NCBI RefSeq assembly: GCF_003971255.1
Contig: NZ_CP034660.1
Location: 3,844,001 to 3,908,000 of the forward strand
Length of the DNA: 64,000 nt
Reading direction: 5' to 3'
Source of the DNA: Colwellia sp. Arc7-635
GTDB lineage: Bacteria > Pseudomonadota > Gammaproteobacteria > Enterobacterales > Alteromonadaceae
Shown piece after piece: positions 55,488-59,801 of the stretch. The position numbers and the translations under genes are program-made. Each line of letters starts with the position of its first letter. Position 1 is the first letter of the stretch. The notes beneath the pieces are model-generated. The model searched no databases. It had not been told where the DNA came from and was given only the letters and a program-made list of their open reading frames with translations.

Positions 55488-56230
55488 TGCTCTAACCGAA
55501 AGGCCGACAATTTATTTTCGATTGCATGTGGATTTTCAGCTAAAGCAATAGCAATCAATCCTTCGGTCATCATTTCACGGTACATAGTTTGCTGGTGAAC
55601 AATGGCTTTAATTTTATTTGCTACAGGTAAATAGATGAGATTTGCAAAACCCACACCGTAAATAGTTGCAACAAATGCAGTAGCAATACCTTGCCCTAAT
55701 AACTGTGGATCCGCTAAGTTGGACATAGCGTGTATTAAACCTAACACAGCGCCTAGAATTCCGATCGTAGGACTATAACCTCCCATAGATTCGAATACGT
55801 GTGCTGAACGTAAGTTATGCTCTCGATACAGATCTAAATCAAGTTCAAGGGACACCCTTAAATTTTCGACTTCGACGCCGTCAACCAGTAAATTTAATCC
55901 CTTGTTGACGTAAAAATCATTTTCTTCTTCAGCAATGTGCTCTAACGATAAAAAGCCAAGGCCTCGTGCCTTCTCTGCCCAATCTACTATTGACTCTATG
56001 CCCTGTTCAACATCATATTTAGGTGGAAAAAAAAGCCATTTAAGCAAGGTCATTGCATGGAAAAACTGACTTTGTGACGACTGCAGCATGACCGCCCCAA
56101 GTGTGCCACCAAAAACAATAATAAAAGCAGGCAATTCCAATAATGAAGATATAGCACCACCATCAATAATAAAGCCTAAGTAAATGGCTAAAATAGCAAT
56201 AATCAGTCCTGATATACTCAGTTTATCCAT
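55484..56230 (-). CDS. motC: Flagellar motor protein MotC (MotA-like stator subunit)
   Basis: A 248-residue MotA/PomA homologue with four membrane helices: [20 protein letters not shown] near residue 3, [17 protein letters not shown] near 34, and a pair near residues 150-205 ([39 protein letters not shown]). A cytoplasmic loop lies between helices 2 and 3. The ATG at 56230 (MDKLSISG) is preferred; the frame extends to 56269 inside cheB without family similarity. It overlaps the cheB stop by 8 bases. Confidence 0.92.
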
Positions 56231-57365
56231 GCTGTATTTCCTTAAGAATTGCAGATGGAAAGCTTTCAATTGCCAGTGACAGTTCAGATATTCCAGCTAC
56301 AGCTACCGCTTGAGGCATACCATAAACAACACAAGACTCTTCATCTTGCGCCCATATAGTTGCGCCTTTATTTTTGAGTAATCGACTACCTTCTCGGCCA
56401 TCAGCGCCCATGCCAGTCAATATGATACCCAAAACATTACCACCAAAAACTTTAGCAGCAGAGCCAAAACTAATATCTACACAAGGTTTAAATGCAATCC
56501 GTTCAGAAGTATCGTCAACTATTCTCAATTTTGCAGTGTTTTCACTGCCATCAATGATCATTTGCTTACCACCTGGTGCAAGATAAGCACACCCTGGCTT
56601 TAAAATATCACCAGAATCAGCTTGTTTTACTTTTATTTTGCACAAACTATTTAATCGATTGGCAAAAGCTAAAGTAAAGGCGGCTGGCATATGCTGCACC
56701 ATTATTATTGGCAATGGAAAGTCTTCAGGTAATTGAGTTAGCAGTTTTTGTAATGCTACTGGTCCACCGGTTGAAGTACCAATGGCTAATAATTTATATT
56801 TTTTGCCTGAGCTCTTTTTAAACACTGTATTTGGACGTGAAATTACACGCGGGGCAATCGCTGAATTCGATGAGGCACTAATCGAACTTGATGGTGTAAT
56901 ACTTCTCGCTTTTACTTCATCCAGTGCACGTGAGCGATATGTTGATACCCTCGGTGATCTTGACGCTTTTTTTCTTGCTAACTGTAAAACACGCTCACGC
57001 AATAAGCTTCCTGCATCTTCGGTGTTTTTAGCAATCTCATTAAATTTTTTCGGCAGAAAATCTAGTGCCCCTGCATCAAGTGCTTCAAGTGTTGCTTTAG
57101 CACCGTCATGTGTAAGGGAGGAAAACATAATAATTGCGGTAGGTGCTTTTGCCATTATCTACTTTACTGCATCGATGCCATTTAATAAAGGCATCTCGAT
57201 ATCCATGGTAATAACGTCAGGTTTCAAAGCGATTGCTTTTTCAACCGCATCAATTCCATTAATAGCGACATCAATAACGTCAAGTTCTGGATCATTATTG
57301 AGAATATCCGTTACTCGGCGTCGAAAAAAACTGGAGTCATCAACCACCAATACTTTAAAGGACAT
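56223..57365 (-). pseudogene. cheB: Protein-glutamate methylesterase CheB interrupted by an in-frame TAG
   Basis: The reading frame from ATG 57365 to stop 56223 would encode a normal 380-residue CheB, but codon 69 (57159-57161) is TAG. Before it: the receiver start ([20 protein letters not shown]) and phosphorylation site region ([19 protein letters not shown]). After it, in the same frame, ATA ATG GCA AAA continues the receiver ([33 protein letters not shown]) and then the methylesterase with GTSTGG (Ser), QHMP (His) and GMGADGREG (Asp). Relatives have a Glu or similar in this spot (VxEIMAKAP), so one base change explains it. Unless the codon is read through or translation restarts at ATG 57155, six bases after the TAG begins, CheB is lost or loses its regulatory half. 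A sequencing error is the main alternative. Confidence 0.88.
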
Positions 57366-57707: not shown

Positions 57708-59801
57708 CTAAGAACGCAATTTTTTATTTACAATAGATTTTTTTGCGTAATATTTCAGCATATTAGGCACATCAAGGATTAATGCAATACCACCATCACT
57801 GGTAATTGTTGCTCCTGCCATGCCTGGAGTGCCGTGCAATAACCGATCCAAAGGTTTAATAACAACTTCTTCTTGACCAATTAATCGGTCAACTACAAAG
57901 CCAATCTGCTGATTACCTAACTGCACGATAACCACATGACCAAGATCTCTTGGTTTATCAACATAGTTTCGCACTAACCATTGATCAAGGTAAAACAATG
58001 GAATGGCTTTTTCACGAACAATAATCGTTAACTGACCATCAACTAGATTTGTTTTCGTTAAATCAAGATGGAAAATTTCATTCACGCCAGCTAAAGGCAG
58101 CGCGAAAGTTTGTTTGCCAACAACAACCATTAGCGTTGGTAATATTGCTAACGTTAGCGGTACTTTAATTTCGAGTACTGTACCAACGCCCATTTCGGAG
58201 TCGATATTAACCGTACCATTAAGTTGGGTAATTTTTGTTTTAACAACATCCATTCCCACACCACGACCTGATACTTCTGAAATTTCAGTTTTTGTTGAAA
58301 AACCAGGAGCAAAGATTAAACTAAAAGCTTCTTTATCTGGCATGCGTGCTGCAGCATCAGCATCTAGTACGCCACGCTCTATAGCAATTTCTTTCAACTT
58401 ATCAGCATTCATACCCGCACCATCATCTCGAATGGTCAGTAGAATATGATCACCTTCTTGAGACGCTGATAAAACCACAACACCTTCACGTGGTTTGCCC
58501 ATAGCTTCACGTTTATCTGGTGCTTCGATGCCATGGTCAACCGAGTTACGCACTAAATGCACTAAAGGATCGGCTAATGCTTCAACTAAATTCTTATCTA
58601 AATCGGTTTCTTCACCTTCAAGAATAAGTCTAATTTCTTTATTTAAACTACGGGCTAAGTCACGTACGACACGAGGAAATCGACCAAAAACCTTTTTGAT
58701 AGGTTGCATGCGCGTTTTCATTACCGCGCCTTGCAAATCAGTGGTTACAGCATCAAGGTTTGATACCGCTTTTGTTAATTCTTCATCGTCTTTTGTCATA
58801 CCTAAACTAGTTAGGCGATTTCGGACAAGAACCAATTCACCAACCATATTCATGATTTGATCTAATCGTTTGGTATCAACCCTAACCGTTGTTTCACCCT
58901 GTGACGCTTTTGCAGGTGCAGCCTTTTGCTCACTTACTGGAGCGGCTTTATTAACTGTTGGTTTGGCTACTGGAGTTGCTGGAGCGGCTGGCACGACTTT
59001 CGCAGCTGGTTTTTCAACAGGAGCTGCAGCTTGTGCTTTAGGACTTTGCCCTTTGCCATGCAATTCATCAAGTAATGATTCAAATTCATCATCATCTATT
59101 TCATTAGACGACGCTGATTTATTCGTTTTAGCTTCAGAAGTAGCTACAGCAGGAGAAAAAGCGCCTTGACCATGCAGTTCATCAAGTAATGACTCAAATT
59201 CGTCATCTGAAATATCATTGCTATTGGCAGTTACTGGCTGTGCTGGAGTTGGCGCACTAGGCGTTGGGCCTCCACCGCCATGTAATTCATCTAAAAGACG
59301 TTCAAATTCATCTTCAGACATTTCATCGCTAGAACTGCTACTCGTTGGTGCAATAGCATCAGCGGTAACCGTGTCCTGAGTAACAACCGGAGCCGCTACC
59401 GCATCTTGGCTTTCAGGCAATGATAAACGATGTAATTCAGCTAATAAGCTAGGTTCGGCGCTTGATAATGGTTGTTGATTTTGTACTTGAGCAAACATTT
59501 CGTTAATCGTGTCAAGTGCTTGTAATATAACATCCATTAATTCAGAGGTAACTGAACGTTGTTGATTTCTTAAGGTGTCAAAAACATTTTCTGCACCATG
59601 ACAAGCATCAACTAATTCGGCGAGAGACAAGAAACCAGCACCACCTTTTACGGTATGAAAACCTCTAAAAATGGCATTGAGCAAATCAGCATCATTTGGA
59701 TTATTTTCAAGCTCAACTAATTGCTCCGACAAGGTCTCAAGTATTTCTCCAGCTTCAATTAAAAAATCCTGAAGAATTTCTTCATCTTGTTCAAATGACA
59801 T
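57708..59801 (-). CDS. cheA: Chemotaxis histidine kinase CheA
   Basis: A 697-residue kinase that passes phosphate to CheY and CheB. HPt domain with phospho-His in FRGFHTVKGGAGFLS near residue 49; a long linker (about 120-310); dimerisation and kinase domain with VRVDTKRLDQIMNMVGELVL near 313, LVRNSVDHGIEAPDKR (N box) near 420, REVKTD-type regions and GRGVGMDVVKTKI (G box) near 515; a C-terminal CheW-like regulatory domain. The linker carries three copies of a DDEFESLLDELHG-like motif near residues 158-174, 194-211 and 231-249. It lies between cheZ (13 bases) and the unusual gap before cheB. Confidence 0.96.
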   Translation of the reverse strand: MSFEQDEEILQDFLIEAGEILETLSEQLVELENNPNDADLLNAIFRGFHTVKGGAGFLSLAELVDACHGAENVFDTLRNQQRSVTSELMDVILQALDTINEMFAQVQNQQPLSSAEPSLLAELHRLSLPESQDAVAAPVVTQDTVTADAIAPTSSSSSDEMSEDEFERLLDELHGGGGPTPSAPTPAQPVTANSNDISDDEFESLLDELHGQGAFSPAVATSEAKTNKSASSNEIDDDEFESLLDELHGKGQSPKAQAAAPVEKPAAKVVPAAPATPVAKPTVNKAAPVSEQKAAPAKASQGETTVRVDTKRLDQIMNMVGELVLVRNRLTSLGMTKDDEELTKAVSNLDAVTTDLQGAVMKTRMQPIKKVFGRFPRVVRDLARSLNKEIRLILEGEETDLDKNLVEALADPLVHLVRNSVDHGIEAPDKREAMGKPREGVVVLSASQEGDHILLTIRDDGAGMNADKLKEIAIERGVLDADAAARMPDKEAFSLIFAPGFSTKTEISEVSGRGVGMDVVKTKITQLNGTVNIDSEMGVGTVLEIKVPLTLAILPTLMVVVGKQTFALPLAGVNEIFHLDLTKTNLVDGQLTIIVREKAIPLFYLDQWLVRNYVDKPRDLGHVVIVQLGNQQIGFVVDRLIGQEEVVIKPLDRLLHGTPGMAGATITSDGGIALILDVPNMLKYYAKKSIVNKKLRS

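What the first reader, a model, noticed from the sequence alone, without database searches (positions are those of the whole stretch)
57153..57167. cheB carries an in-frame TAG codon in its receiver domain
The sequence reads GTA AAG TAG ATA ATG GCA in the cheB frame; both sides keep perfect CheB character in the same frame, including all catalytic residues downstream. A single change from GAG (or AAG/CAG) to TAG explains it, and an ATG lies six bases after the stop begins, so stop-restart translation is conceivable. It would then give a receiver-less (unregulated) methylesterase plus a short receiver stub. Loss of CheB would disturb chemotactic adaptation.
Basis: partly seen in the sequence, partly recalled or inferred. 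Interest (0 to 1): 0.72.

Follow-up and report, generated by a model that had tools for sequence, protein, structure and literature searches.

The report
Recent nonsense mutation in cheB
The only chemotaxis methylesterase gene found in this marine bacterium carries one internal stop codon in an otherwise well-kept sequence, most likely a very recent loss-of-function mutation (or a sequencing error), which is ordinary biology.

Summary
On the minus strand, cheB (57365..56223) has an in-frame TAG at codon 69 (57161-57159), with CheB sequence on both sides and an ATG three bases further on. The genome is kin to Cognaticolwellia/Colwellia. All 16 other held genomes of the genus have an open cheB with glutamine there. 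Among 149 family genomes with listed matches it is the only internal stop. One CheB and one CheR match were found. TAG ends 9 of 37 checked window ORFs, and none of the 90 tRNA genes found reads UAG. Codons 1-118 show no residue private to this genome besides the stop, so the stop is very young, not real, or tolerated. Restart at Met71 has suitable spacing (3 nt) but no Shine-Dalgarno, and its product would keep the second half of the receiver. Best reading: a recent C-to-T nonsense allele in the sequenced strain that nearly abolishes regulated CheB activity. A consensus error is the main rival; no reads could be examined. Interest is low.

The parts
56223..57365 (-). cheB (receiver + methylesterase), 381 codons including the end stop, interrupted at codon 69
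57159..57161 (-). in-frame TAG (codon 69); CAA/CAG (Gln) in 16 of 16 other held genomes of the genus
57162..57365 (-). 68-codon stub: first half of the receiver (matches Response_reg profile 1-61 of 111)
57153..57155 (-). ATG (Met71), possible restart codon, 3 nt after the TAG, without a Shine-Dalgarno
56223..57155 (-). 310-aa open frame: second half of the receiver, linker and complete methylesterase domain
57708..59801 (-). cheA, open, neighbouring gene of the cluster; its own stop is TAG and its last residues are the same as in relative L194

Best explanation
The sequenced strain carries a very recent nonsense mutation (inferred C-to-T change of a Gln codon to TAG) at codon 69 of the only cheB found in its genome. 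Translation from the normal start ends after a 68-residue half-receiver. At most a small amount of a 310-residue fragment (half receiver + linker + methylesterase) is made by restart at Met71. Expected consequence (inferred): phosphorylation-regulated demethylation of chemoreceptors is lost. CheR would then act nearly unopposed and adaptation would be strongly impaired. Shown: the stop, its uniqueness among the genomes examined, the conserved flanks, no second CheB match, and no suppressor tRNA among those found. Inferred: that the base is real, the age, and the phenotype.
For: The stop is in frame between two conserved pieces. Gln stands there in 16 of 16 other genus members, with open frames of 371-376 aa. 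The 80 named loci kept (the best 80 of 149; 10 of them are records of the same genus genomes) are all open with a sense codon there. It is the only internal stop among 150 listed matches in 149 family genomes. CheB and CheR each gave one match. TAG ends 9 of 37 minus-strand ORFs checked, including cheA, whose C-terminus agrees with a relative's. No CTA anticodon was found among 90 tRNA genes. A CTA-loop pattern gave 14 matches against 24 for its reversed control, none at a tRNA match. Selection was intact until recently: residues 1-118 have no private change besides the stop, and the catalytic domain changes at a rate within the genus range. Under a neutral-after-stop model, the upper bound on the time since the stop is roughly 2-3% of the terminal branch. 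Against three relatives, cheB is the only ORF compared that has an internal stop. In E. coli, cheB deletion strains are described as hypertumbly (PMC12270135, passages), and a catalytic-domain-only CheB severely compromises soft-agar migration (PMC5809149, passages).
Against: The same lack of decay is what a base-calling or assembly error would give, and no reads or second isolate could be examined. The Met71 spacing (+3 nt) lies in the range where coupled re-initiation can be efficient in E. coli gene pairs (PMC10666635, passages), and 5 of 32 ATG ORF starts in the window have an even weaker Shine-Dalgarno score than Met71, so residual activity is possible.
Confidence: 0.66

Rival explanations
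1. Consensus or assembly error: the strain has a sense codon and an intact CheB.
For: No sign of decay anywhere in the gene; a lone substitution in an otherwise open cluster; one held assembly only.
Against: Single-contig genome listed with completeness 100 and contamination 0.02. No other internally interrupted ORF was found in the window against three relatives. Single substitutions to stop are a less typical error than indels (recalled).
Confidence: 0.2
2. Working stop-restart gene: ribosomes terminating at TAG re-initiate at the ATG 3 nt downstream and make useful amounts of a partly deregulated methylesterase.
For: Stop-to-start spacing of 3 nt. Three E. coli pairs moved to +2 nt lost 5, 20 and 70% of their native coupling (PMC10666635, passages). 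The methylesterase domain is complete and conserved. Deleting the receiver activates E. coli CheB, though less than phosphorylation does (PMC8609364, passages). 5 of 32 ATG ORF starts in the window score weaker than Met71.
Against: No Shine-Dalgarno (-0.6 kcal/mol; 52% of 292 internal ATGs are at least as strong). Met71 is present in all 16 other same-genus copies, so it is an old receiver residue and not an adapted start. The fragment keeps half a receiver, with exposed core expected (inference). The unused first half shows no decay. A catalytic-domain-only CheB severely compromised soft-agar migration in E. coli (PMC5809149, passages).
Confidence: 0.11
3. The TAG is read as an amino acid by a suppressor tRNA or programmed readthrough, so full-length CheB is made.
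For: Both flanks are under strong purifying selection.
Against: No CTA-anticodon tRNA in the 31 stretches covering the 90 tRNA matches. TAG ends 9 of 37 ORFs checked in the window. No other held genus member has TAG here.
Confidence: 0.03

Closest known systems
CheB receiver-methylesterase (Salmonella CheB, PDB 1a2o)
   Same: Receiver plus CheB_methylest domain; an intact genus relative aligns to 1a2o over residues 3-356 (E 4.8e-63); the window's 310-aa piece aligns at 8.8e-47. Calling 1a2o the Salmonella enzyme rests on PMC8609364
   Different: Internal stop at codon 69, aligned to residue 70 of 1a2o, in the third receiver helix (topology recalled)
Intact cheB of 16 genomes of the same genus (Cognaticolwellia/Colwellia)
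   Same: 78-87% identity over the 310-aa piece; same flanking motif, DAVKxIM or EAVKxIM; matching neighbours in the three relatives whose cluster was fetched, G010, G003 and G013
   Different: They have Gln (CAA/CAG) where this genome has TAG
CheBc, the E. coli catalytic-domain-only CheB (PMC5809149, PMC8609364; passages)
   Same: A restart product would likewise lack the phosphorylation site
   Different: CheBc lacks the receiver and linker; the putative fragment here keeps residues 71 onward, about half of the receiver

Membership tests
CheB (chemotaxis methylesterase) | CheB_methylest domain | tested here: met
   PF01339, 203.4 bits (cut-off 24), profile 2-173 of 174
CheB (chemotaxis methylesterase) | N-terminal receiver in one uninterrupted frame | tested here: not met
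   TAG at codon 69; stub 68 aa, downstream ORF 310 aa; the downstream ORF has no Response_reg match at E 0.01
CheB (chemotaxis methylesterase) | Place in a flagellar chemotaxis cluster | tested here: met
   CheA, CheZ, CheY-type receiver, CheW, CheW-like, MotA- and MotB-type proteins nearby
Recoded or suppressed stop (readthrough gene) | tRNA reading UAG, or TAG not used as a stop | tested here: not met
   No CTA anticodon; 9 of 37 ORFs checked end in TAG. Limit: the tRNA search scored 150 of 389 first-look candidates
Translationally coupled split gene | Start codon close to the stop with ribosome-binding signal | tested here: inconclusive
   Spacing +3 nt, but no Shine-Dalgarno
Pseudogene | Loss of purifying selection after the lesion | tested here: not met
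   No private residue change in 1-118; catalytic rate in genus range; as a pseudogene it could only be a very recent one

The most novel reading that the evidence does not exclude
A split CheB: the two coupled halves (residues 1-68 and 71-380) are both made and re-associate into a working, still phosphorylatable receiver-methylesterase, which would explain why both halves remain conserved.
Probability: 0.02. Interest if true: 0.6.

Novelty: new member of a known kind. Interest (0 to 1): 0.15.

Why it matters
If the base is real, the sequenced strain is a natural cheB mutant in an otherwise apparently intact chemotaxis system, so behavioural work on it should be read with that in mind. It also shows a lesion caught before decay. 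It reveals no new mechanism, and it could be a sequence error.

Tried and rejected
Stop-codon reassignment: rejected, because TAG is a normal stop in the window and no suppressor tRNA was found. The CTA pattern asked for an A after the anticodon and a standard T-arm, so it could miss odd tRNAs. One odd tRNA at L166:87-170 looks like tRNA-Asn with extra bases in the anticodon loop; ARAGORN could not assign it.

Redundancy through a second CheB: rejected, one PF01339 match only.

A wider pattern of broken cheB genes: the family search flagged two further TAA stops (G117, G113) and the relatives search one at a best match (G037). All three proved to be the normal end of the gene. Other TGA/TAA flags (G011, G034) are on low-identity paralogous matches and were not examined. 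In one search, 35 of 196 genomes had no match at 1e-90 and were not looked into; its match list stops at 150 rows (my count).

General decay of the chemotaxis system: a chemoreceptor flagged with a TAA is a 432-aa frame that ends there. CheR is an open 276-aa frame. Against G010, G003 and G013 (39, 40 and 37 ORFs with hits, of 59, 61 and 64 ORFs of 100 aa or more), only cheB showed an internal stop. Two other STOP flags lie at gene ends where start or end differ (L117:13434-14240 and L120:22-528); this was judged from their coordinates and the ORF lists, not examined further. The LOWCOV flags lie at the window's edges.

Relaxed selection: the window's copy has 5 private catalytic residues, 29.8 per unit branch length; the genus ranges from 0 to 60.6. 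The linker is variable (37 nonsynonymous, 33 synonymous differences from G010), as it is between other pairs of the genus. Private changes cannot date the stop if the gene still works through restart.

Papers: searches; I saw titles and starts of abstracts of the rows listed (15 of 26, 1 of 1, 3 of 3, 12 of 12, 8 of 23, 10 of 21). None of those listed is, by title and abstract start, a report of this cheB allele. The search 'cheB, nonsense mutation, chemotaxis, premature stop' returned one paper, on Yersinia and phage, not opened. Seen as passages only: PMC8609364, PMC10666635, PMC12270135, PMC5809149.

A script slip: eleven minus-strand loci of L001-L030 were not turned round, so their rows are meaningless; one search mended this. 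The codon tally at the end is shifted by one codon; the contexts printed above it are what I used.

Full report
What is there. The minus strand carries cheB from ATG 57365 to a TAA ending at 56223, with a TAG at 57161-57159 (codon 69) in the same frame. Before it lies a 68-aa frame that matches the first 61 of 111 positions of the Response_reg profile. After it lies a 310-aa frame from ATG 57155 with a nearly full-length CheB_methylest match, 2-173 of 174. The observation and coordinates are right.

Organism and relatives. The window lies in a 4.74-Mb single-contig genome listed as 100 complete. The nearest named records are Colwellia/Cognaticolwellia. That search gave no name for the genome itself, and its own record may be left out of the collection. 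All 16 other held genomes of the genus have an uninterrupted cheB of 371-376 aa with Gln at this position, 7 CAG and 9 CAA (one search shows 17 held genomes of the genus, own included). The 80 named loci (best 80 of 149; 10 are records of the same genus genomes) are all open, 358-397 codons with the stop, and have Gln, Glu, Lys or Ala there. In a family-wide search, 161 of 196 genomes matched an intact relative at E 1e-90. Of the 150 listed rows (149 genomes, my count), three contained a stop: this one, and two that are normal gene ends.

Could the stop be read through? TAG ends 9 of the 37 minus-strand ORFs that I took, including cheA, whose last residues agree with a relative's CheA. The tRNA search found 90 genes (150 of 389 first-look candidates scored). 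ARAGORN on the 31 stretches that hold them listed 90 genes, none with a CTA anticodon and one unassigned. A direct pattern for a CTA loop plus T-arm gave 14 matches against 24 for its reversed control, and none coincides with a tRNA match.

Selection. Between this genome and G010 there are 2 nonsynonymous against 23 synonymous differences in codons 1-68, 2 against 22 in 70-118, 37 against 33 in the linker, and 26 against 72 in the catalytic domain. Apart from the stop, residues 1-118 have no residue private to this genome. The catalytic domain has 5 private residues, a number within the genus range for the branch length. With a three-point branch dS of about 0.6 (near saturation, so rough), about 166 changes would be expected in codons 1-118 if unconstrained over the whole branch. 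Zero seen bounds unconstrained time to about 2% of the branch, or 3% using codons 1-68 alone. So the lesion is very young, or is not real, or both halves still work.

Function expected. The genome gave one CheB match, one CheR match and 25 chemoreceptor matches over the cut-off. CheA, CheZ, CheY-type, CheW-type and MotA/MotB-type neighbours are open and match their families, and comparison with three relatives found cheB to be the only compared ORF with an internal stop. In E. coli, cheB deletion strains are called hypertumbly (PMC12270135, passage). A CheB without its receiver is activated, though less than by phosphorylation (PMC8609364, passage), but cells with the catalytic domain alone migrate poorly in soft agar (PMC5809149, passage). 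Both null and restart readings therefore predict impaired chemotaxis (inference from E. coli). Next to cheR lies a gene that reads as a CheW-receiver (CheV-like) protein (by eye), a possible alternative adaptation element (recalled role).

Restart. The ATG lies 3 nt after the TAG, within the range where coupled re-initiation works in tested E. coli gene pairs (PMC10666635, passages). It has no Shine-Dalgarno: -0.6 kcal/mol against -4.3 at the native start; 52% of 292 internal ATGs are as strong or stronger. Against that, 5 of 32 ATG ORF starts in the set are weaker still, so a weak score does not rule a start out (the 32 include Met71 itself). The product would start at the residue aligned with position 72 of 1a2o and keep about the second half of the receiver. 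That half is too little for a Response_reg match at E 0.01 and aligns to 1a2o only weakly on its own (i-Evalue 0.0024). It is therefore a crippled receiver and not a clean receiver deletion.

Verdict. The likeliest account is a very recent Gln-to-stop mutation in the sequenced strain. A sequence error is the main rival and cannot be excluded without reads. This is ordinary and of low interest.

Noticed in passing
L166:87-170 (-), own genome C1:1581787-1581869: tRNA-Asn-like gene near three tRNA-Asn(GTT) copies, with extra bases in the anticodon loop; ARAGORN names no amino acid; probably a degenerate copy.
   Followed up: partly
57708-59801: CheA has three copies of a DEFExLLDELHG-type motif between the Hpt and dimerisation domains, and Pfam reports no CheY-binding (P2) domain; similar repeats occur in relatives L194 and L195. 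They look rather like the CheZ C-terminal end (DDLLSSLGF) and could bind CheY (inference).
   Followed up: no
L198:1796-2776 (-), own genome C1 about 3957295-3958275: CheW-plus-receiver (CheV-like, by eye) gene directly upstream of the only cheR found.
   Followed up: no
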